20,526 nucleotides of DNA from a virus, in the IMG/VR virus record IMGVR_UViG_3300042340_000174, positions 1 through 20,526 of that record. The stretch is one strand, 5' to 3'. The notes beneath the pieces are model-generated. The model had not been told where the DNA came from and did no database searches. It saw only the letters and a program-made list of their open reading frames with translations. Each line of letters begins with the position of its first letter. The first letter of the stretch is position 1. The translations under genes were made by a program, and so were the position numbers. Of this stretch, positions 1 to 20,526 are shown in pieces.

Positions 1-2814
1 GGAGTTGGGAAGTTCATTTGCCTGCAAGCTGTCGGTCACAGTATACCTAGTTGCGGTACCAGTTAGGTCCGCATAGACTCGATTTTGTGTGTAAGTGTTC
101 GAGTGCGTGTGCCAAATGCTCACCGTCACTTTGTACATACCAGTTTCGTTGAATGTGAAAGTAACAGCACCAGAGGAGATTGCGCCTACCGTGATGTTTC
201 CTGTTCCAGCAGAGTTTACAGTCCGTACCGATGGCAGCCCTGTTGAGCTAGAAAGGTTGTTGGGGTTCCAGTTTTCGTACGTGACAAAAGTAGGTACCGC
301 ATTCCACAGGTTCTGCACGCCAACCGGATAGCCCACAACCGCGCCGCCCGATACTTTGCGCACTCGCCAGCGATAACCTGCCCCAGCCACTGCAGACCAG
401 TTTACTCCTGGAATAACGGCAGAATAGAAAAATACATCGGCATCTGTAGTGGAGCCAGTTACACGGTCTACAGTGAACCCGTAGTAAGTGGTTCCTGCGT
501 CGTTGGAGGAAAATGGCGCAAGAAATTGTTCCAGTGGTGACCAGTTACCATCTGACCTACGACCCTCGACTACTAGGTAATCGGTAGCCTGAATTGGTGT
601 TTGGAACCGGACACGCTTAGTCACGCTTGCGGTTGTGCCGGGGGCAAATGCCTGCAAAACAACACCTGACGAACCATTCCCGAAGCTAGTTGTGTCCGAT
701 GTGGTAGAAGTAGAACTATTCCACGCGTATTCCTCAACCGCCCTTTCCGCCATGGTGACGTTGCTGGACCACTGGGAGATTGGAACCATAATGTCTATGG
801 TGTAAAAGTCTCCCGCACCAAAAGTAAAAGGTGACGTAGTTGTTACCGTGCCAGTACCGGATGCGTTGATTCCAAGAAGCACTTTGTCGCTTCGTACTGT
901 ACTAACTCCACCATAGTTTTGCACGCCTGTATCAGTTGCTTTCCATGTACCGGACGCAATGGTTTCGGTATCTCCCGCGCCGGTTTTTACCGTTATCCCA
1001 AGTCCATTAAGCATCTGAGCTTCGGTAAGGGAAAAAGACCCACTTGGTGTGCCAGTAAAAGCAAAGTCAATATGGAGTGCAATCGAGTCGCCGAACCGCT
1101 TCCAACGCCCAGTCATGGTCGTGTTGGTGAGGGATGTCGTTGGGGTGTAAGTGTTCCAGTCGGTGCCAGCATAGCCCACAAGCTGCACCTGCGGACCTAC
1201 ATAGATGGTGTCGAGCCTGATTTGCTCAGCTCCGGAGATGCGCCTGAACCTAAGTGCGTAGAGGTCGCCAGCAGTGGAGCCAGATACGAAGAACCCGCGC
1301 TGTTGTGCGGTGCCGGTAAGGAGGGAAGCCGATGGAGTGCTGGTAGACGCAGATGCCGTGCCAGCCACAGGGATGAGTGCTTGGAAGGTACCGCTGGAGT
1401 TATATCGCGCGACTACCACGTCCCAGCCAAGCGCGGTGAGTCCTGTTATGTCGAACGAGAGCGAGACAGGTTTGCCAAGGTCGGATGATTCCAGGGCGAT
1501 TGCGGGAAACTGGAAGAAGCGTCCGCCTGCTGTATCAGAGCCGGAAAGGGCTGAGAGATAGTTGGTAGAGCCGCGTAGGGCAGTGGATGTGGAGGAAGAC
1601 AGTGCGGATGAGCCGGAGGTGGTGTCTGCGTAGAAAAGTCCTGCAGTGGTGGCGATATTACCACCAGCGGCTACTGTGGAGAGTGTACCGGGAGAAACTA
1701 CTGCAAGAGCGTACGGTTTAAGGTAGTTCTTGAGGGGTTGTTCGTTAACGCCGCCACCAACAGAAGCCCATGCCCCATTAGCGTAACCTTCGAATTCGTC
1801 CGCGTCGGTGTTGAACCTAATGTGCCCTTCTTGGGCAATTACGGGACGCTGTGCTTCGGTACCGGCGGGAAGTTTAATGGCAGACGTTCCCAGAAAATTT
1901 GCAGCGCCCACATTGTTTGCTGCGGTGCCACCCGAAAAAGTTGCCACGTTGGTGTTGTTTGCGCGAATTGTCGTAGACGCGTTGCTGCCCGCGTTTTTAT
2001 TACCCAACGTAACGGTGACGTCACCTATGTCGTTGCCGCCTTTTAGTGCTGCGTTGGAGGTGTCGTCAAAGGTTTTGTTGGTAAGATTCTGTGTGTCAGA
2101 TGTACCGACTACGGAGCCTGTTACGCCGTGCACGCCTGTGGATGCACCCGTGTGGGCCGAGAGTGCAGAAGACGTAGCGCGGGTGTCTACATCGGACTGC
2201 AACTCATTGAGGGCGGCTTGGACGTCGGTTGCTGCAAGGTTTCCAGAAGGTACGCTAGAAATGGCAGACGCGTCGTGTGCGTCTACGGCATCGCTAAGGT
2301 GGTTGCTAAGGTCACTTGCGAGCGCCCGCGTATCTACGTCGCTTTGTAATTCGTTTAGTGCACCCTGTACATCCGTGGCCGCGAGGTTGCCTGCTGGCAC
2401 GGAGGAGATGGCCGAAGCATCGTGCGCATCTACGGCGTCGCTAAGGTGGTTGCTAAGCCCAGTAGCCCCTGTGTTAAGTTGCGTCTGGATGTCCGAGGTG
2501 ACACCATTCAGATACTGAAACTCGGTGCTGGACACGGAGCCGTCAGCAATCTTGGAGGCGTCTATAGCAGCGCCGGCCTTGATGTCGGCATTCTCGATGT
2601 TTGTGATGGTGTTGAGGTCTGCATTAATGGTCTTATTGGTGAGTGCCTGCGAGGAGTCCGCCGACACGAGTACGCCAGCTGCATCCTGTGGAGGAAGCTG
2701 CACATCTCGCGCACCCGTGTACGTAGTGGACTGGTTAGGACGAAGCGTGACGTCCTGGCCGTCCTTGCGGAACAGGAGAGAGACTGCGCGACTGATTGAC
2801 CCAAAAATCTTCAT
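1..2814 (-). CDS. Large tail-fibre-like protein, 3' end beyond window
   Basis: An open frame of 938 codons runs from ATG at 2814 to base 1 without a stop, so the C-terminus lies outside the window. The start is supported by GGAGG eight bases upstream, encoded inside the last codons of the preceding GIY-YIG gene, with an ATGA start/stop overlap. Residues 55-113 hold the ALTNKTI / GAAIDASKIADGSVS module common in phage fibres. Residues 121-164 and 170-213 are two nearly identical 44-residue repeats (DAHDASAISSVP, NLAATDVQ, ALNELQSDVDTR). After about residue 350 it becomes a Ser/Thr/Gly-rich beta-type protein. The last visible stretch (near residue 880 on, with ETGMYKVTVSIWHTHS) resembles a C1q/TNF-like jelly-roll edge; that is an inference. 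The likely role is an adhesin or fibre on the virion. Confidence is high for the frame and moderate for the exact virion position. Confidence 0.85.
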   Translation of the reverse strand, partial: MKIFGSISRAVSLLFRKDGQDVTLRPNQSTTYTGARDVQLPPQDAAGVLVSADSSQALTNKTINADLNTITNIENADIKAGAAIDASKIADGSVSSTEFQYLNGVTSDIQTQLNTGATGLSNHLSDAVDAHDASAISSVPAGNLAATDVQGALNELQSDVDTRALASDLSNHLSDAVDAHDASAISSVPSGNLAATDVQAALNELQSDVDTRATSSALSAHTGASTGVHGVTGSVVGTSDTQNLTNKTFDDTSNAALKGGNDIGDVTVTLGNKNAGSNASTTIRANNTNVATFSGGTAANNVGAANFLGTSAIKLPAGTEAQRPVIAQEGHIRFNTDADEFEGYANGAWASVGGGVNEQPLKNYLKPYALAVVSPGTLSTVAAGGNIATTAGLFYADTTSGSSALSSSTSTALRGSTNYLSALSGSDTAGGRFFQFPAIALESSDLGKPVSLSFDITGLTALGWDVVVARYNSSGTFQALIPVAGTASASTSTPSASLLTGTAQQRGFFVSGSTAGDLYALRFRRISGAEQIRLDTIYVGPQVQLVGYAGTDWNTYTPTTSLTNTTMTGRWKRFGDSIALHIDFAFTGTPSGSFSLTEAQMLNGLGITVKTGAGDTETIASGTWKATDTGVQNYGGVSTVRSDKVLLGINASGTGTVTTTSPFTFGAGDFYTIDIMVPISQWSSNVTMAERAVEEYAWNSSTSTTSDTTSFGNGSSGVVLQAFAPGTTASVTKRVRFQTPIQATDYLVVEGRRSDGNWSPLEQFLAPFSSNDAGTTYYGFTVDRVTGSTTDADVFFYSAVIPGVNWSAVAGAGYRWRVRKVSGGAVVGYPVGVQNLWNAVPTFVTYENWNPNNLSSSTGLPSVRTVNSAGTGNITVGAISSGAVTFTFNETGMYKVTVSIWHTHSNTYTQNRVYADLTGTATRYTVTDSLQANELPNS
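2176..2454 (-). repeat. Two tandem 132-base coding repeats in the left fibre gene
   Basis: Bases 2323-2454 and 2176-2307 encode two copies of a 44-residue unit (residues 121-164 and 170-213), 147 bases apart. The two protein copies differ at only two positions that I can see (A/S and G/A), while the DNA shows several synonymous differences. This looks like an older duplication held by protein-level selection. The DAHDASAIS...LAATDVQ...ELQSDVDTR motif recurs in fibres of many phages. Confidence 0.85.
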
Positions 2815-3509
2815 TCCTCAATCCTCCAAAAAGTTAAGTTAAGCTTGTAGTATGGACGGCTTGACTTAATACAGTGTGTAATACTACATGCGGGCATTTT
2901 TAGGTCGTAGGCAGCTGCTTGCGCAGACTCATAGGTCTGACCATTACTGCATCCAATCTTTTTGCTAAGTGCCGCACGAACTCCTGCAGCCCGTTTGCGT
3001 AGTTGCTCTTCCGTAAACACCTGCCTAGCCCTGGCTTCTCGTATTTTTTGTTTGGTTACTTCACTTTTTTGCTTACCGCGATTGGCGTCGGCTATGCGTC
3101 TACCTGTCTCGGGCGGCCGTTTACGTCCCTTATGTGCACGACTGATTGCTTCTCTAGTACTATCTGCTACTACTCGAAGCTTTCTCTTTTCGCGTGTTTC
3201 TGGACTCCACCTATGCCCTTTTGCTGGCTGCCGTGCGACTCGCTCAATATTTAGCTTGGGTTGAAGCAAGTTCATCCAATACTGCTCCATTCCTAGAGTC
3301 AGGTCACCGGGATGGTACTCAAGTACTTCAAACGCCAACGAATCCGGTCCGTATTTGTTATACGTATTTTGTAACATGTTATTAACATGCTTGTTTAGCC
3401 GCAGCTTTGCTAGGTGTCTACGCCAACGCTCATGTACGCAGATACTGCTGGAGCCCACGTAGGTGGCTCCAGTCACTGTACAAGTTATTGTGTAAACACC
3501 GCTTTGCAT
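2811..3509 (-). CDS. GIY-YIG homing endonuclease with NUMOD repeats
   Basis: A 232-aa GIY-YIG family endonuclease. The signature is GVY (residues 4-6) with YVG (17-19). Arg28 in HERWRRH and Glu75 in LGMEQYW sit where I-TevI has its catalytic Arg and Glu, and LNI follows at 87-89. Residues about 100-165 are basic and carry NUMOD3-like repeats (RWSPETREKRK, RKRPPETGRR, QKSEVTKQKI). The C-terminus (SNGQTYESAQAAAYDL...) resembles a NUMOD1 helix-turn-helix. Known relatives cut a homing site in phage DNA and spread by gene conversion. It lies between two fibre genes, overlapping the upstream stop as TAATG and the downstream start as ATGA. Its own Shine-Dalgarno (AGAGGT) lies at the very end of the upstream fibre gene. 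All visible catalytic residues are intact, so it is probably active. Confidence 0.93.
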   Translation of the reverse strand: MQSGVYTITCTVTGATYVGSSSICVHERWRRHLAKLRLNKHVNNMLQNTYNKYGPDSLAFEVLEYHPGDLTLGMEQYWMNLLQPKLNIERVARQPAKGHRWSPETREKRKLRVVADSTREAISRAHKGRKRPPETGRRIADANRGKQKSEVTKQKIREARARQVFTEEQLRKRAAGVRAALSKKIGCSNGQTYESAQAAAYDLKMPACSITHCIKSSRPYYKLNLTFWRIEE

Positions 3510-6976: not shown

Positions 6977-7582
6977 CTATTTAGACTGTTGCTCAACCAG
7001 ACGGCGGGCCCAGGAGAGGAACTCATCCACTGAGTGGTCCCGCTTGGCAATGTTGCACTGCTTGCAGCACGCGACTATGTTGCCCGGCTCATAGCCTTTA
7101 CCATTGTCCACTCGGTCGATTCCGTTCACCGATACACAGAGGTTTTGGTAGTAGGAGTCATTGAACGACCCACGCTTTAAGGCCTGAATCCTATAACCAG
7201 AACCGCCCGTCTTAGACGCTACAGGAGCAGCTCCGCAGTAGTAACAGTCCCGTGTTCCTACAGCCTTCATCTCTTCCAGGGTCACATTGAACTCAATGTT
7301 ACGTTCCTTGGCTTTGATTTTGTAGTTGTAATACCACTTATTGTAGCCGACCTGGTCTCCCTTCGTGCTGTGGTGGTACGCGCGGGTTGCTTCGGGGACA
7401 AGGCAACCGCAGGACTGTACGCCTCCATCTACTAGGTTCTTGCTCAATGTCTCTTTGGTATTACCGCAGTCGCAGCGACACGCCCAGGTAATGCCTACTC
7501 CTCGGCTACCGCTCTTAACTTTATGCGTAACAATCAGGCGACCAAACCTCTGTCCCGTCAAGTCTCTTACTCGATTAGGCAT
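6977..7582 (-). CDS. HNH homing endonuclease with N-terminal Cys-rich DNA-binding region
   Basis: A 201-aa free-standing HNH endonuclease. The N-terminal residues 7-61 (LTGQRFGRLIV ... WACRCDCGN ... SCGCL) are the Cys-rich segment found in many phage HNH/AP2-type proteins. The nuclease core has CYYC (113-116), NGIDRVDN (153-160), N168 and CCKQCN (172-177), the usual zinc-stabilised HNH layout. The start ATG is backed by GGGAGGT seven bases upstream, a strong ribosome site. The gene lies alone between the capsid terminator (7611-7641) and two hairpins (6910-6964), outside the overlap-linked gene runs. A poor promoter-like pair lies in the 40 bases before it (TTGCTC, 17 bases, CATAAA), so expression may rely on read-through. 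Homing function is inferred from family and context. Confidence 0.9.
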   Translation of the reverse strand: MPNRVRDLTGQRFGRLIVTHKVKSGSRGVGITWACRCDCGNTKETLSKNLVDGGVQSCGCLVPEATRAYHHSTKGDQVGYNKWYYNYKIKAKERNIEFNVTLEEMKAVGTRDCYYCGAAPVASKTGGSGYRIQALKRGSFNDSYYQNLCVSVNGIDRVDNGKGYEPGNIVACCKQCNIAKRDHSVDEFLSWARRLVEQQSK

Positions 7583-9038: not shown

Positions 9039-9578
9039 TTACTGTTTATACCAGTTTAGTCTGGCGTGTTTGGAGAGATTGTCGGCCGCGGTAAGCGCCT
9101 GAAGATTAGTCCAGTGGGTAGCTTGACGCAGTTGTTCTGCGTTTGTCAAGTCCCAAGCACACAGCGGCTTTATATGGTCTATATGAAACATGGTTGGGTT
9201 GTCTAGATAGGAGATACCGTAGCGCTCCATAGCCGTCTGGTTCAGATGCTGAACTAGTGTGGACAAGGAGCAACCGAGTAAGTCTAGCGTTCTTTTGTCC
9301 TTCTTATACCCCCTCAGTGCGTTTTTTAAGCGAGAGCGTAGCCGGTGAGCTGCATTGGCTTGTGGGCAAGTTCGTCTCTGGGTAGTAATATAATTACTGA
9401 CATATGCTCTTACTTGGTCCCGATTCTTCTCGACGTACAACTTGTGATTGGCCGCATACCGTGCCTTGTTCTGCTGGTAATGCCAACGTTTATACTCCCT
9501 GCAGCGACCGTTGGTATCCCAATGGTCTCCGGGACGGGTGAATTCAGCTTGGCAATGGTTGCAAAACTTAGTGGTCAC
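9039..9578 (-). CDS. HNH homing endonuclease between scaffold and capsid genes
   Basis: A 179-aa HNH endonuclease. The N-terminus has a zinc-knuckle pattern (CNHC at 6-9, with C26 further on) and a Tyr/Lys/Arg-rich linker. The nuclease core is FHIDHIKPL (131-139), then HWTNLQAL (155-162) and DNLSKHARL (166-174), the classic pattern of phage HNH enzymes. The start is GTG at 9578, overlapping the scaffold stop as GTGA, so translation is probably coupled. Only ten bases separate its stop from the capsid GTG, and its stop codon is part of the capsid ribosome site. Catalytic His and Asn residues are present, so it looks intact. As a known class it would cut an endonuclease-free capsid-scaffold junction in related phages. 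Confidence 0.92.
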   Translation of the reverse strand: MTTKFCNHCQAEFTRPGDHWDTNGRCREYKRWHYQQNKARYAANHKLYVEKNRDQVRAYVSNYITTQRRTCPQANAAHRLRSRLKNALRGYKKDKRTLDLLGCSLSTLVQHLNQTAMERYGISYLDNPTMFHIDHIKPLCAWDLTNAEQLRQATHWTNLQALTAADNLSKHARLNWYKQ

Positions 9579-11115: not shown

Positions 11116-11192
11116 TGGTACCCCTCCACGGAATTGCACCGCAGACCTTCACTGTATCAGAGTGACGCTCTAACTAACTGAGCTAGAGGGGC
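11116..11192 (-). tRNA. tRNA-Ile (anticodon GAT)
   Basis: The minus strand from 11192 folds as a 77-base tRNA. The acceptor is GCCCCTC/GAGGGGT with a G1-U72 wobble, the D stem GCTC/GAGC, and the anticodon stem TCACT/AGTGA is perfect around loop CTGATAC, giving anticodon GAT (isoleucine). The T stem is TGCGG/CCGTG with two wobbles. A73 is followed by an encoded CCA (11118-11116). The T loop begins TGC instead of the usual TTC, and the G1-U72 pair is unusual, so it may be a diverged phage tRNA. Phages often carry tRNAs to match their own codon use. It lies between the portal gene and the secreted-protein gene, in the same direction as both. Confidence 0.88.
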
Positions 11193-16569: not shown

Positions 16570-17109
16570 CTAGGTTAGATTAACCGAAGCAGCCGACTGG
16601 GTAACGCCAGCGACTGTACCCCCGGAGGGCCGGCCCGCGTACTGCAGGTCGGCTCTTTTTAGTTCTAGCAGGTAACGCTCATGCGCCTCTTGCTCGGTAG
16701 CAAAGTAACCTAAGGTGCGCTGCTTCTTGTTTTCCTGGAATGTAGCTCTCCAGGTCTTGTCTCTAGTAGCGTAGTGGCAGCCAGGAAGACGACCATTGCG
16801 ATGACTAACGCGGTTCTGGCAGTTCTCGCGGTGAGTTACAACCCGTAGATTGGTGATTCTGTTGTCGCTCCGCACTCCGTTAATATGGTCCACTTGACCG
16901 TCTGGCCAGCTTCCATAGTGTAGTAGCCACGCTACCCGGTGGGCCGCATAGGTACGACCGGAGAGGGAGACACGGACGTACCCATTGACTTTGTTCTTTA
17001 TCTCGTCGCCGGGCCGAACCCCCTTAGGGCGGGCTACACGCCAGATGAGCTTACCTGTGTCAGCCTGATAGTGTATTAGGTTTGCAATGTAGTCTGGCGT
17101 GTGTAGCAT
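16570..17109 (-). CDS. HNH homing endonuclease with AP2 domain
   Basis: A 179-aa protein of the common phage HNH-AP2 architecture. The HNH core comprises HRVAWLLHYG (57-66), VDHING (73-78) and DNRITNLRVVTHRENCQN (82-99). The AP2-type DNA-binding segment runs from about 109 to 150 (PGCHYATRDKTWRATF, LGYFATEQEAHERY). All signature residues are present. The ATG at 17109 has GAGG five bases upstream and lies about 18 bases from the predicted transcription start. It is therefore the first gene of the promoter-driven late transcript, and would be expressed as strongly as the terminase genes. The family usually acts as a homing endonuclease. Confidence 0.93.
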   Translation of the reverse strand: MLHTPDYIANLIHYQADTGKLIWRVARPKGVRPGDEIKNKVNGYVRVSLSGRTYAAHRVAWLLHYGSWPDGQVDHINGVRSDNRITNLRVVTHRENCQNRVSHRNGRLPGCHYATRDKTWRATFQENKKQRTLGYFATEQEAHERYLLELKRADLQYAGRPSGGTVAGVTQSAASVNLT

Positions 17110-17534: not shown

Positions 17535-18014
17535 CTAGCGCACGATGCCCCACCGACGCAGGGACATTCTGCGCGTGTTCTCCGAACGTGTCACCCATTC
17601 ACAGTTATGGGGACTGTAGGACTGTGTCGGGTCTATGCGGTCTATAGACAAACCAGGGGACCAGCCAGAGGCTAAGGCCCATTGATAGAATTGCTGGCGA
17701 TGGACGCGCCACTCCTCACACACGGTTACTCCCTTGGCGCCGTAATACTGATAATTGCAGTTCTTCTCGTTATAACAGCGTTGCATCATGTCTCCCCAAG
17801 ACCGACGCAACTTTAACGGGACGCGCGCACTGGGCGCCTTCGTCTCTTTTTGTCTTCTGGGGAGATAGGTAAACGTCTCCTGCTGAAACCTCGGGCCTCG
17901 CCCAATGGCATCCATCTTAGCGCGAAACTCCGGGTCAGACTCGTACCGGCGTTTGTTCTGCTTCCAATAATACGCGGCGGCATATGCTCTCTGTTTGTCT
18001 GTCTTATCAGCCAT
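17535..18014 (-). CDS. Homing-endonuclease-like protein (HNH-related, YGAKGVTVCEEW family)
   Basis: A 159-aa protein. The C-terminal half has the hallmarks of a widespread phage HNH-like family: SWGDMMQRCYN (72-82), YYGAKGVTVCEEW (90-102), a helix FYQWALASGW (109-118), GLSIDRID (121-128), YSPHNCEWVTRSENTRR (133-149). The N-terminal 60 residues are basic and helical (KQRAYAAAYYWKQNKRRYESDPEFRAKM) and probably bind DNA. The ATG has AGGAGG ten bases upstream. It is the first leftward gene beside the divergent region. A TTGACT lies upstream at about 18059-18064, but the -10 at proper spacing (CATTGT) is weak. It may be the fifth mobile nuclease in this window. Confidence 0.8.
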   Translation of the reverse strand: MADKTDKQRAYAAAYYWKQNKRRYESDPEFRAKMDAIGRGPRFQQETFTYLPRRQKETKAPSARVPLKLRRSWGDMMQRCYNEKNCNYQYYGAKGVTVCEEWRVHRQQFYQWALASGWSPGLSIDRIDPTQSYSPHNCEWVTRSENTRRMSLRRWGIVR

Positions 18015-18255
18015 GTTAACTGGGCCTCCTTTTCCTCACAATGCCACAACTTTTCCCTTTAGTCAAACCGGAATCAACCGATACGTCTTATGAAGGCCAG
18101 GACGGGGGGCGGCGACAGCCGCCGGGTCGCAGACCCTCCCTCCCAGCCTAAGCAGACCAGCAAGCCCGGGTAAATCAACCCGCACCTACTGAACCTGCCG
18201 CCCGCCAGCCGATTGTGGTCACCGGGACGCGCTTGCCCTTAAGTGGAGAGCGATA
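18015..18255. other. Divergent intergenic region between the two operons
   Basis: Leftward transcription of the endonuclease gene and rightward transcription of the hammerhead-led operon both have to start in or near this stretch. Two adjacent GC hairpins are visible: GGCGGC-GACA-GCCGCC (18108-18123) and GGGTC-GCA-GACCC (18124-18136). Neither is followed by a T run on either strand, so they are not classic terminators. No good sigma70 promoter is evident for the rightward operon, which could mean another factor or an upstream-acting phage protein. Confidence 0.45.
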
Positions 18256-18308
18256 GTGTCCGGGCATGAAACTTGCCCGCTGATGAGGGTCTAGTAAGAC
18301 CGAAACAC
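18256..18308 (+). ncRNA. Type III hammerhead ribozyme
   Basis: All elements of a hammerhead are present in order. Stem III 5' strand is GTGT (18256-18259), cleavage base C at 18260 (GUC site, cut before 18261). Stem I is CGGGCA (18261-18266), 7-base loop, TGCCCG (18274-18279), a perfect 6 bp. The core is CTGATGA (18280-18286). Stem II is GGGTCT/AGACC with one bulged G and loop AGTA (18287-18301). Then GAA and A (18302-18305), and stem III 3' strand ACAC (18305-18308) pairing with GTGT. Stem III is open, hence type III. The motif lies in the leader of the rightward operon, six bases before the AGGAG of the first gene. Self-cleavage would leave a message whose 5' end is the folded ribozyme. Hammerheads are known in some phages; activity here is inferred from structure. 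Confidence 0.87.
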
Positions 18309-18325
18309 CATTTAGGAGTAACACC

Positions 18326-18556
18326 ATGACACACGTAACACGACACGATATGGAATTTGCTTTTTGCGAGGCTATGCAAGAGGAGTTTGGTGACGTCAGC
18401 ATCTGCGGCTTTAACTTCAGTCCAGGCTATGCACTGAAGGAGGTGAGTCCAGTCGACTTCGAACTGTCCCTCAAGGAATTCACACACCAGCTAGTTGAGG
18501 CTGGTATCTGGACTAGACACGAGGATGGCACCATACACGACGCAAGCTTAAACTAG
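18326..18556 (+). CDS. Hypothetical 76-aa protein behind the hammerhead
   Basis: First gene of the rightward operon: ATG at 18326 with AGGAG seven bases upstream. The product is small and acidic (EFAFCEAMQEEFGDVSICGFNF, VSPVDFELSLKEFTHQLVEAG), with alternating helix and strand and two cysteines, and no membrane segment. I do not recognise a family. Its ribosome site directly follows the ribozyme, so its translation would be the one most affected by cleavage or by folding of stems II and III. Confidence 0.7.
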   Translation: MTHVTRHDMEFAFCEAMQEEFGDVSICGFNFSPGYALKEVSPVDFELSLKEFTHQLVEAGIWTRHEDGTIHDASLN

Positions 18557-18570
18557 AAAGGAACCACACG

Positions 18571-18801
18571 ATGCCTACCAATATTCACGCTCTCGCCCAA
18601 CATATTCGCAAACTGTACCTGGAAAAGCTCCAGACTGACCTCACCGACGCAGGCTATCGCGTGGCGTTCAAACAGGGGACAGGCCGCACGGTAGCTGCGG
18701 TGGGCCTTCACGTGCACGCTCCCACTGAGGTCGACCTGCTCGAAGCAGCAGAGAAAGCCATGCGGGACGGCTACGACAGCGTCTTTATCTACCCAAACTA
18801 A
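18571..18801 (+). CDS. Hypothetical 76-aa protein
   Basis: ATG at 18571 with AAGGAA upstream, 14 bases after the previous stop. The N-terminus is an amphipathic basic helix (NIHALAQHIRKLYLEKLQTDLTDAGYRV), followed by two strands (KQGTGRTVAAVGLHVHA) and a helix (EVDLLEAAEKAMRDGYDSVFIYPN). It looks like a compact alpha/beta protein. No known family or catalytic motif is recognised. A small early-type protein acting on the host is plausible from position only. Confidence 0.7.
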   Translation: MPTNIHALAQHIRKLYLEKLQTDLTDAGYRVAFKQGTGRTVAAVGLHVHAPTEVDLLEAAEKAMRDGYDSVFIYPN

Positions 18802-18823
18802 ACCAACATAGGAGTACTCAGCC

Positions 18824-18940
18824 ATGACACTAGATATTACTTCAGATGCCTTCCTTACTCTCGCGTTCATGCCACTGCTCGGGTTCGTGAGCTTCATTGT
18901 GCTGATGACCCTCCTCATCCTGCTAGTAGAGAGGAGTTAA
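18824..18940 (+). CDS. Tiny membrane protein, 38 aa
   Basis: ATG at 18824 with GGAG (18811-18814) nine bases upstream. Almost all of the chain after residue 9 is hydrophobic (FLTLAFMPLLGFVSFIVLMTLLILLV), ending ERS. It is one membrane helix with an acidic N-terminus (MTLDITSD). It is directly followed by a second tiny membrane protein. Peptides of this size act as holins, superinfection factors or regulators in phages; none can be chosen here. Confidence 0.6.
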   Translation: MTLDITSDAFLTLAFMPLLGFVSFIVLMTLLILLVERS

Positions 18941-18941
18941 C

Positions 18942-19037
18942 ATGGCAGACATCGTCTGGCTGGTAGCTACAATAGCTGTCAGTGTCTACCTCGGCATCAA
19001 CTTAGCTAAGCTGCTAGCTCGGGCCCTACTAGGCTAG
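18942..19037 (+). CDS. Tiny membrane protein, 31 aa
   Basis: ATG at 18942, one base after the previous stop, with GAGGAG (18931-18936) inside the end of the upstream gene. The product MADIVWLVATIAVSVYLGIN continues LAKLLARALLG: one membrane helix with a short basic tail. Spacing and ribosome site support a real gene despite its size. It is probably co-translated with the 38-aa peptide, perhaps as a pair. Confidence 0.55.
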   Translation: MADIVWLVATIAVSVYLGINLAKLLARALLG

Positions 19038-19043
19038 TCATCT

Positions 19044-19277
19044 TGCTAGCTTACTTGAGTCCGGCCGCTTGGTTGGGTGAGCGAAGCGAACCTGCTTGCT
19101 TAGAGCTTAACAGCCTAACCAGTCAGACGCACTCGACACTGCGCATCAACTCTCGGGCGCTTCCCGGTGAATGACGCCAGTAAGCTAGACCGTGCTCTTT
19201 ACCAGAGCACCTCAAGACCCCCGAGACTGAGACAGACGGGAACGGAAGGTTCACCATGCTGTGGGGCTAGCTTACTG
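19044..19277 (+). ncRNA. Candidate structured RNA with alternative helices
   Basis: This gene-free stretch contains more long stems than expected. TGGTTGGG (19070-19077) pairs with CCTAACCA (19114-19121) and encloses AGCGAAGC/GCTTGCT (19080-19087/19094-19100, one bulge). TCTCGGG (19151-19157) pairs with CCCGAGA (19220-19226) around the perfect hairpin GTGCTCT-TTACC-AGAGCAC (19192-19210). GGTGAA (19166-19171) can pair with TTCACC (19250-19255). AGTAAGCTAG (19179-19188) can pair with either CTAGCTTACT at 19046-19055 (10 bp) or 19267-19277 (11 bp with flanks). Some of these pairings cross, implying pseudoknots or alternative states. The stems are seen directly; that they form an RNA element (ribozyme, switch or protein-binding leader) is inference. 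It is roughly 95 bases upstream of the next gene. Confidence 0.5.
19045..19276. repeat. Repeat GCTAGCTTACT: two direct copies and one inverted
   Basis: GCTAGCTTACT occurs at 19045-19055 and 19266-19276, each followed by a GAGTC-like sequence (TGAGTCC and GAGTCGC). The inverse complement of its last ten bases occurs at 19179-19188. The two direct copies bracket the structured stretch about 220 bases apart. Confidence 0.75.
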
Positions 19278-19370
19278 AGTCGCACCGTTAGCAGCGCAAC
19301 TAGAGTACAAACTACGTATAGCATATTTCCACGCATCTGTCAATACATTCTTTTACGGAGCCTTAACGCC

Positions 19371-19709
19371 ATGACATCACCGAATAACCTTTACGCTGGC
19401 CCATCTCCCTCCTCTGCCCTCACCGAGACCCTCGCCAGCCTTCCCGACTTTGCCCTCCGCTCCCTGGCCGAGACCACACCCGACATCAACGTGGTGCGTA
19501 TGGTAGTCCAGGAACTGTATCTGCGCCTCGAGCTGCGGGCATGGACAGACCTCGAGGCAGACGAGGCAAACGCTGACGCGTCCGACGAGGCGAATGCCGA
19601 GTTCCGAGACGAGGACGAGTACCCTGCCTCCCTTCAACGCGAGGAGTACGAAACGAGCCTCCTCAGGGCACGCCGCGAGTCGGCAAGCCGGTACCCCTAT
19701 GGAGACTGA
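19371..19709 (+). CDS. Acidic helical protein, 112 aa, unknown
   Basis: Start chosen at ATG 19371, with GGAG ten bases upstream. The longer frame from 19167 would run through the structured non-coding stretch and its extra residues look random. The product begins MTSPNNLYAGPSP, then has a helical part (LTETLASLPDFALRSLAETTP, VVRMVVQELYLRLELRAW). A strongly acidic run follows (DLEADEANADASDEANAEFRDEDEY), and the tail is charged (LLRARRESASRYPYGD). Acidic runs of this kind occur in DNA-mimic and small regulatory phage proteins, but there is no family match that I can name. It ends six bases before the next ATG. Confidence 0.65.
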   Translation: MTSPNNLYAGPSPSSALTETLASLPDFALRSLAETTPDINVVRMVVQELYLRLELRAWTDLEADEANADASDEANAEFRDEDEYPASLQREEYETSLLRARRESASRYPYGD

Positions 19710-19715
19710 CCAACC

Positions 19716-20129
19716 ATGGCCAGCAGCCTTATTATCGCCCTTATCACCGCCTCAACCCAACCTGGCCTCACCCATACAACGTATGGATGGGGCGAACACA
19801 TGTGCGGAGACCCTCATGCACCTAGCCCCTGCGACACCACTGCCACCACTGCCTCCGGCCTCCCCTTTCATCCCGACGAACCACACGTGGCCATACATGT
19901 GCCCAGCGACGTTACCGGTCGCGTCCGCCTTCGTCCTGGACGGTGGACTGTCTGTTTCCGCCACGTACGGAGCGGAACATACATCCACCTCCCTATCACC
20001 GACAAGAAGGGGAAGAAAGGGGGCCTTGACTTTAGCCCCGGTGCCCTTCGACTGCTGGGCATCCATCCCACACCCTGGTGGAGCGGAACACTAACACCAT
20101 GCAGCAAACAACAGGAGACGACCAAGTGA
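19716..20129 (+). CDS. RlpA / double-psi beta-barrel-like secreted protein
   Basis: A 137-aa product. A short hydrophobic N-terminus (SSLIIALITAS, residues 3-13) may be a signal sequence. Residues about 20-127 follow the pattern of RlpA/expansin-like barrels: TYGWGEHMCGD (22-32), TASGLPFHP (45-53), a strand region (about 57-94), D96 in PITD, then LDFSPGALRLLGI (104-116), like the conserved IDLS-x-A-LGI segment of RlpA. Four cysteines (C30, C39, C80, C129) could form disulfides outside the cytoplasm. RlpA-type proteins are lytic transglycosylases or wall binders, so a role in wall degradation is plausible; the family call is by eye. GGAG lies 11 bases before the ATG. Its stop overlaps the next start (GTGA). 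Confidence 0.6.
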   Translation: MASSLIIALITASTQPGLTHTTYGWGEHMCGDPHAPSPCDTTATTASGLPFHPDEPHVAIHVPSDVTGRVRLRPGRWTVCFRHVRSGTYIHLPITDKKGKKGGLDFSPGALRLLGIHPTPWWSGTLTPCSKQQETTK

Positions 20130-20317
20130 GCAACGTAATTGACCTGACCGAGTACATCAAAATTAAAAAGGGACGGGAACAACAAGGCAGGCCCCTTTCC
20201 GAGGATGCACAGGCCGAATTCAACCGACGCGTAATGCGTATCAAGGAAAGCATCGAACGCATTGACAAGTTGGCCAAGGAATTGCGTGGCGAAGCAAACA
20301 AAGCCGGGAGTACTTAA
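20126..20317 (+). CDS. Small helical protein, 63 aa
   Basis: I place the start at GTG 20126: AGGAG lies eight bases upstream and the GTGA overlap with the preceding stop matches other junctions in this genome. A longer reading from GTG 20078 lacks this support. The product is strongly charged and helical (VIDLTEYIKIKKGREQQG, EDAQAEFNRRVMRIKESIERIDKLAKELRGEA), a likely coiled coil, with no membrane segment. No family is recognised. Confidence 0.65.
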   Translation: MSNVIDLTEYIKIKKGREQQGRPLSEDAQAEFNRRVMRIKESIERIDKLAKELRGEANKAGST

Positions 20318-20319
20318 GT

Positions 20320-20490
20320 ATGCTAATCGAGACTGTTCTCCTCGTGGTCGGCCTTGCTATCGCCGGTGCATGGGGAACCGAGAAAGTTGTTGACGTAAAG
20401 AAACACAATGCTACGCTACAAGCAGACCGCTACGCGCAGTGTGTCGCGGCTACCAAAGACCCTAGGCAATGCCGCAACTTGGAGAACTGA
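20320..20490 (+). CDS. Small membrane-anchored protein with two cysteines, 56 aa
   Basis: ATG at 20320 with GGGAG nine bases upstream, two bases after the previous stop. An N-terminal hydrophobic helix (residues 5-19, TVLLVVGLAIAGAWG) is followed by a charged segment (TEKVVDVKKHNATLQADRY) and C41 and C51 near the end (QCVAATKDPRQC). The layout resembles short i-spanin-like or other inner-membrane-anchored periplasmic proteins, but it is shorter than usual spanins. It follows the RlpA-like protein, so a joint envelope role is plausible. Confidence 0.6.
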   Translation: MLIETVLLVVGLAIAGAWGTEKVVDVKKHNATLQADRYAQCVAATKDPRQCRNLEN

Positions 20491-20493
20491 CCC

Positions 20494-20526
20494 ATGCTCT
20501 CACGCTTCTTCTTTCCTGCCCTCGTT
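20494..20526 (+). CDS. Start of a further gene with hydrophobic N-terminus, cut by window
   Basis: ATG at 20494, GGAG (20481-20484) nine bases upstream, three bases after the previous stop. Only 11 codons are in the window: MLSRFFFPALV. The Arg plus hydrophobic run looks like the beginning of a signal peptide or membrane anchor. If a lipobox follows to the right, it would be a candidate outer-membrane spanin partner of the 56-aa protein; this cannot be seen. Confidence 0.5.
   Translation, partial: MLSRFFFPALV

What the first reader, a model, noticed from the sequence alone, without database searches (positions are those of the whole stretch)
18256..18308. Complete type III hammerhead ribozyme in the leader of the rightward phage operon
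Every invariant element is present: GUC cleavage site at 18258-18260, core CTGATGA, GAAA, a perfect 6-bp stem I, a stem II with one bulged G, and a 4-bp open stem III. It ends six bases before the first gene's AGGAG. Cleavage would trim the message and leave stems I and II as its 5' cap-like structure, perhaps controlling mRNA decay or early translation. Hammerheads are documented in some phages, but one placed directly on the first ribosome site of an operon would be a notable regulatory arrangement.
Basis: partly seen in the sequence, partly recalled or inferred. Interest (0 to 1): 0.92.

Follow-up and report, generated by a model that had tools for sequence, protein, structure and literature searches.

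The report
Hammerhead ribozyme in phage operon leader
This phage carries a small self-cutting RNA (a hammerhead ribozyme) just in front of the first gene of an operon; the same element, often with one extra letter in its core, sits just before genes in many unrelated phages, so it is real and most likely trims phage messages, although no cutting has been measured here.

Summary
Window 18256-18308 is a complete type III hammerhead: every invariant core base, cleavage predicted after C18260, stems I/II/III of 6/5/4 bp. Rfam's Hammerhead_3 scores it 37.8 bits (E 3.6e-7 for the 161-nt stretch searched), below its cut-off of 48.5. A model built from other phages' ribozymes, window left out, gives 68.5 bits; the next best place in the window scores 12.3. 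A related phage (L003), fetched by its terminase, has the ribozyme at the same place: all 6 stem I pairs and 3 of 5 stem II pairs are changed on both sides yet still pair. The "bulged G" is a recurrent one-base insert after A9. 102 distinct type III hammerheads were gathered from viral contigs (58 with the insert, mostly U). 82 of 99 measurable ones end within 45 nt of a start codon (control 26%). Loop I-loop II pairing, ACU/AGU here, exceeds permutation. The insert form also occurs in cultivated Pseudomonas phage LKA1. Placement on an operon's first ribosome site has a published precedent (HF1/HF2). Likely role: self-cleavage gives the operon mRNA a 5'-OH, hairpin-capped end. Cleavage and any effect on decay are inferred; folding gives no support for translation unmasking.

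The parts
18256..18308 (+). type III hammerhead ribozyme, predicted cleavage between C18260 and C18261
   Evidence: RF00008 37.8 bits; phage model R1 built without the window 68.5 bits, E 3.6e-21
18256..18259 (+). stem III 5' strand (GTGT), pairs with 18305-18308
   Evidence: sequence; aligned helix 98% paired over 13 phage copies that were chosen for having the stems
18258..18260 (+). GUC cleavage triplet
   Evidence: sequence; H17 is C in 98 of 102 instances
18261..18279 (+). stem I hairpin CGGGCA-TGAAACT-TGCCCG; would be the 5' end of the cleaved mRNA
   Evidence: all 6 pairs changed on both sides in L003 and still paired
18280..18286 (+). catalytic core CUGAUGA (C3-A9)
   Evidence: sequence
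18287..18287 (+). one-base insertion between A9 and stem II
   Evidence: insert present in L003 (T) and in 58 of 102 phage instances (46 T, 6 G, 6 A)
18288..18301 (+). stem II hairpin GGTCT-AGTA-AGACC
   Evidence: 3 of 5 pairs double-changed against L003
18271..18273 (+). loop I ACU, predicted to pair with loop II AGU (18293-18295)
   Evidence: loop-loop pairing in 40 of 80 unique loop pairs against 16.7 by permutation, 0 of 5000
18302..18308 (+). GAA plus A15.1 and stem III 3' strand (GAAACAC)
   Evidence: sequence
18314..18318 (+). Shine-Dalgarno AGGAG of the first gene
   Evidence: sequence
18326..18556 (+). first gene of the rightward series, 76 aa, phrog_9396 of unknown function
   Evidence: ORF; PHROGs E 4.5e-7
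18209..18233 (+). conserved block upstream (CCGATTGTGG..CCGGGACGCGCT) shared with L003; candidate promoter of unknown type
   Evidence: alignment; no consensus sigma-70 promoter in 17950-18600; single copy in the window

Best explanation
A functional type III hammerhead ribozyme in the leader of the rightward operon. A transcript started upstream (perhaps at or near the conserved block 18209-18233) folds during transcription, loop I docks on loop II by ACU/AGU pairing, and the RNA cuts itself between C18260 and C18261. The downstream mRNA then starts with a 5'-hydroxyl at the first base of stem I, with stems I and II ahead of the ribosome site. Shown by sequence and comparison: the structure, its covariation, and its recurrent place on ribosome sites of phage genes. 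Inferred: cleavage itself, the start site, and that the purpose is to give the operon message a uniform end resistant to 5'-end-dependent decay and free of upstream RNA (I put about 0.45 on that purpose; the confidence below is for an active, message-trimming ribozyme).
For: Complete core and stems. Left-out covariance model 68.5 bits. L003, fetched by terminase rather than by ribozyme, has it at the same place with 9 of 11 pairs of stems I and II double-changed. Of 246 distinct motif matches in all sequence fetched by then (mostly viral contigs), 60 have a matching stem I, T-H17 and stem III against about 0.6 with shuffled 5' flanks. Loop-loop covariation. Distance to start codon: median 21 nt; 82 of 99 within 45 nt against 26% for random places. 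Insert form in phage LKA1 upstream of ORF2 and in two LKA1-like phages with compensatory stem II changes. Published precedent: haloviruses HF1/HF2, hammerhead 13 nt upstream of the first gene of an early polycistronic transcript, mRNA 5' end mapped within three nt of the cleavage site (PMC3088659). A 5'-terminal stem-loop can stabilise E. coli mRNA (Emory, Bouvet and Belasco 1992, title seen in the reference list of PMC3997798).
Against: No transcript or cleavage data for this phage. Rfam's type III cut-off is not reached. The extra core base could slow the enzyme. A 5'-OH end can also speed decay, as after glmS cleavage through RNase J1 (PMC3997798), so the sign of any effect on decay depends on the host, which is unknown. 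The promoter is not identified. Of the terminase relatives searched with R1 only L003 carries a match, though the fetched flanks of the others need not reach the equivalent region.
Confidence: 0.8

Rival explanations
1. The cut serves to separate RNAs: it releases or removes an upstream RNA (read-through transcript or a small leader RNA with a 2',3'-cyclic phosphate end), and the downstream end is a by-product.
For: 29 of 46 scored intergenic copies lie between two genes of the same direction, a processing-site arrangement; the gap to the same-strand gene upstream has a median of 34.5 nt (crude gene caller). Perreault et al. propose processing of long phage transcripts into gene-length mRNAs. 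The upstream block is conserved between the window and L003.
Against: In the window, and in other copies among the 12 scored with this layout, the gene upstream points away, so there is no upstream message to cut off unless transcription comes from elsewhere; position follows the downstream start codon closely.
Confidence: 0.25
2. Cleavage lowers expression, as in the glmS ribozyme: the 5'-OH message is degraded, perhaps under control of an unknown signal.
For: 5'-OH glmS mRNA is degraded by RNase J1 in B. subtilis (PMC3997798); L003 has a 31-nt loop I that could be a control point.
Against: The window's 7-nt loop I leaves no room for a sensing domain; the cleaved end starts inside a hairpin.
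Confidence: 0.15
3. Cleavage unmasks the ribosome site by releasing stem III.
For: Stem III ends five bases before AGGAG.
Against: Predicted accessibility of AGGAG in the longer folds (to 18420) is 0.55-0.58 before and 0.58 after cleavage; in the shorter folds (to 18345) it is 0.35-0.51 before and 0.55 after. Some copies have the ATG directly after stem III with no Shine-Dalgarno between (L355, L356).
Confidence: 0.08
4. A chance or decayed look-alike without activity.
For: Below the Rfam cut-off; extra core base.
Against: Double compensatory changes with L003, model score, loop-loop pairing, recurrence at start codons.
Confidence: 0.04

Closest known systems
HHphage hammerhead of haloviruses HF1/HF2 (PMC3088659)
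   Same: hammerhead 13 nt upstream of the start codon of the first gene of a polycistronic early transcript; mapped 5' end within three nt of the cleavage site
   Different: insertions near C3 and stem I, not after A9; virus of archaea; weak activity outside high salt was measured for the analogous variant HHmeta
Rfam RF00008 Hammerhead_3
   Same: topology, core, cleavage triplet
   Different: window scores below the gathering score; none of 16 phage loci tested gave a Hammerhead_3 match at that score
Chrysanthemum chlorotic mottle viroid plus-strand hammerhead (De la Pena and Flores 2001; only the title was seen, in reference lists; the rest is my own knowledge)
   Same: one extra nucleotide in the core, to my knowledge between A9 and stem II, compatible with activity
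   Different: viroid RNA, extra A; here G, in most phage copies U
Hammerhead of Pseudomonas phage PaP3 (named in the Figure S6 legend of PMC3088659)
   Same: hammerhead in a phage intergenic region; R1 finds a 20-bit match at 44073-44122 minus of AY078382
   Different: no insertion after A9 in that match and a shorter stem I region; I did not verify that this match is the copy they tested
Element in Pseudomonas phage LKA1, AM265639 1502-1554 (no annotated feature in the record)
   Same: same architecture, insert U, 16 nt before ORF2 of the early region
   Different: phage of another lineage, different downstream gene

Membership tests
hammerhead ribozyme, type III | C3 U4 G5 A6 N7 G8 A9, G12 A13 A14, A15.1-U16.1, H17 | tested here: met
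   read directly, 18259-18305
hammerhead ribozyme, type III | three helices with stem III open, stems I and II closed by loops | tested here: met
   fold; L003 pair by pair; covariation over 13 phage copies, 54 double changes against 13 shuffled, with the caveat that the copies were chosen for having the stems
hammerhead ribozyme, type III | stem II directly adjacent to A9 (usual, not strict) | tested here: not met
   G18287 is inserted. [quoted passage not shown]
hammerhead ribozyme, type III | loop I-loop II tertiary contact | tested here: met
   ACU/AGU can pair in the window; permutation test over the family; the contact itself is not shown
hammerhead ribozyme, type III | Mg2+-dependent self-cleavage 3' of H17 giving 2',3'-cyclic phosphate and 5'-OH | not testable with these tools
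   needs in vitro transcription
Rfam RF00008 as curated | score at or above 48.5 bits | tested here: not met
   37.8 bits, E 3.6e-7 in a 161-nt search
hammerhead on an operon's first ribosome site (HF1/HF2-like arrangement) | ribozyme within a few tens of bases of the first start codon | tested here: met
   ribozyme ends 17 nt before ATG 18326
hammerhead on an operon's first ribosome site (HF1/HF2-like arrangement) | mRNA 5' end at the cleavage site | not testable with these tools
   no transcript data

The most novel reading that the evidence does not exclude
Phages carry a large, mostly unannotated class of leader hammerheads, many with a conserved one-base insertion (mostly U) after A9 and a three-base loop-loop lock, used as a general device that gives phage mRNAs a self-made 5'-OH hairpin end and so takes them out of the host's 5'-phosphate-dependent decay.
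Probability: 0.35. Interest if true: 0.8.

Novelty: new member of a known kind. Interest (0 to 1): 0.55.

Why it matters
What hammerheads do in prokaryotes and their phages is called an open question in a review (PMC6155905). Their recurrent place about 20 nt before start codons, and the presence of the same form in cultivated phages (LKA1 and HHBS14_1 of Pseudomonas aeruginosa, and a phage recorded from M. smegmatis; a hammerhead without the insert in Caulobacter phage S2B), make the question directly testable by mapping mRNA 5' ends and half-lives. Rfam's type III model at its cut-off misses the copies tested.

Tried and rejected
Whole-window Rfam scan: no hammerhead listed; a narrow scan was needed, and L003's copy is missed even so, probably because of its 31-nt loop I. 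Relatives through the first gene: none confirmed. DNA-level matches of 17900-20526 in annotated phages: none. Sigma-70 promoter or terminator near the leader: none found. The conserved upstream block as a repeated promoter motif: single copy in the window (an earlier pattern had the wrong spacing). Bacterial genomes: of 14 pattern matches in 257 Gb only one, in a Rhodospirillaceae MAG, is a full hammerhead by my finder. More distant terminase relatives (L326-L351) gave no hit with R1; their flanks need not cover the equivalent region. Unmasking of the ribosome site: little support from folding. The downstream genes tested share no common function: primase, ATPase, unknown. Two pattern calls and several paper look-ups failed on syntax or holdings.

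Full report
What was checked. The sequence at 18256-18308 was read directly. It has stem III GTGT/ACAC, the cleavage triplet GTC ending at C18260, stem I CGGGCA/TGCCCG with a 7-base loop, the core CTGATGA, one extra G (18287), stem II GGTCT/AGACC with loop AGTA, and GAA. Rfam's Hammerhead_3 model finds it at 37.8 bits, E 3.6e-7 when only 161 bases are searched. That is below the curated cut-off of 48.5, and the whole-window scan does not list it. The RNA folds with stems I, II and III (z -2.6), and 300 Markov copies of the window gave no equally complete hammerhead.

Independent evidence that it is real. The related phage contig L003 was fetched by its terminase (90% identical in the best segment), not by the ribozyme. 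It carries a hammerhead in the corresponding leader: GTGTC, stem I GTCCAC/GTGGGC with a 31-base loop, CTGATGA, an extra T, stem II GGGGA/TCCCC with loop AGCA, GAAACAC, then a ribosome site and ATG. Pair by pair, all six stem I pairs and three of five stem II pairs are changed on both sides and still pair. The loop I-loop II contact is GCU/AGC in L003 and ACU/AGU in the window.

The wider family. An exact pattern for the insert form found 11 viral contigs. Of 246 distinct motif matches among the sequences fetched by then, 60 have the cleavage-site T-H17, a stem I of at least 5 bp and a stem III of at least 3 bp, against about 0.6 after shuffling the 5' flank (T insert 40 of 137, G 12 of 69, A 8 of 30, C 0 of 10). 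With a scan for the form without insert, 102 distinct instances were collected: 46 with T, 6 with G, 6 with A, 44 without insert. These proportions are shaped by the patterns used and are not a census. The insert, which in the window alone could be any of three G's, is placed between A9 and stem II by the family.

Loop-loop contact. Pairing between the loops was not used to select instances. At least three Watson-Crick pairs can form in 40 of 80 unique loop pairs, against 16.7 on average when loops are permuted, and no permutation of 5000 reached 40. For 7-base loop I it is 26 of 33 against 11.8. Relatedness among phages is not removed by this permutation.

Covariation and model. On 13 same-length copies the structure is 95.7% paired, with 54 double-changed cells against 13.0 in shuffles and far above slid versions. 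These copies were chosen for having the stems, so the percentage is inflated; the L003 comparison is the cleaner test. A covariance model of 12 copies without the window scores the window at 68.5 bits (E 3.6e-21); the next best place in the window scores 12.3. L003 scores 32.2 and phage PaP3 20.1.

Position. For 99 copies with enough sequence downstream, the median distance from the end of stem III (counted as at most four pairs) to the start codon is 21 nt, and 82 lie within 45 nt, against 26% for random places on the same strands. With a crude gene caller, 29 of 46 scored intergenic copies lie between genes of the same direction and 12 follow a gene pointing away, as here. In that of the 102 copies overlapped an ORF of the crude caller and were not scored. 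Downstream genes are diverse: primase, ATPase, unknown. Several contigs carry two or more copies, and some also carry type II hammerheads (L021, L045, L318).

Cultivated phages. L035 is Pseudomonas phage LKA1: the ribozyme lies at 1502-1554, 16 nt before ORF2 in the early region, downstream of putative host promoters. Two LKA1-like phages, HHBS14_1 and HHBS51_1, keep it with two stem II pairs changed on both sides, H17 A instead of C and N7 C instead of U, all allowed changes. Mycobacterium phage jiawei (insert form) and Caulobacter phage S2B (no insert by my finder) have a copy whose stem III runs straight into the annotated start codon.

How it most likely works. Shown: structure, covariation, placement. 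Inferred: the RNA cuts itself after C18260, so that the operon message begins with a 5'-OH at the first base of stem I, followed by stem II and the ribosome site. Such an end lacks the 5' phosphate and unpaired bases that 5'-end-dependent decay uses (established knowledge of RNase E and RppH), and a 5'-terminal stem-loop can stabilise mRNA in E. coli (reference titles in PMC3997798). The opposite is possible where RNase J acts, as on glmS mRNA (same review). Folding gives little support for unmasking of the ribosome site: in the longer folds AGGAG is 0.55-0.58 unpaired before and 0.58 after the cut; in the shorter folds 0.35-0.51 before and 0.55 after. The start site is unknown. A 25-base block at 18209-18233 is conserved with L003 and is a candidate promoter.

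What is known. Hammerheads in phages and prophages, often near genes or each other, were described in 2011 (PMC3088659), including HF1/HF2, where the ribozyme lies 13 nt before the first gene of an early transcript whose 5' end maps within three nt of the cut. Inserts of one or two bases next to CUGAnGA are implied by PMC10085705. An extra core nucleotide is known from a viroid (De la Pena and Flores 2001, title only; its position is from my own knowledge). The window's element is therefore a new member of a known kind. I found no paper in the library that describes the insert form as a phage class, but the library lacks most subscription journals and I could not read supplements, so the class may be listed there.

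Limits.

Noticed in passing
window 19036-19325 (+): Stretch without a convincing gene, conserved with L003 1-213 (78% over the part covered), folding z -1.95; an 11-base direct repeat GCTAGCTTACT (19045, 19266) whose two copies can each pair with the middle segment near 19178-19191, as in an alternative-pairing switch; no credible Rfam match.
   Followed up: partly
window 2811-3509, 6977-7582, 9039-9578, 16570-17109, 17535-18014 (-): Five ORFs that look by eye like homing-endonuclease-type (GIY-YIG or HNH) genes scattered among the structural genes; not tested except 17538-18014, which has no Pfam match at E 0.001.
   Followed up: no
L021 4701-4768, L045 4860-4930, L318 3742-3803 and 4715-4779: Type II hammerheads at or above the Rfam gathering score in contigs that also carry the type III copies.
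   Followed up: no
L003 1284-1360 (-): The related phage's ribozyme has a 31-base loop I that may contain its own hairpin and still ends in the loop-lock bases GCU.
   Followed up: partly
L355 646-697, L356 486-539: Ribozyme stem III is followed directly by the annotated ATG with no Shine-Dalgarno between; how these genes are started is unclear.
   Followed up: no
L139 933 (+): A full insert-form hammerhead in a contig binned as a Rhodospirillaceae bacterium; phage origin not checked.
   Followed up: no
window 11116-11192 (-): A tRNA-Ile (GAU) gene between the portal-like gene and the next structural gene.
   Followed up: no
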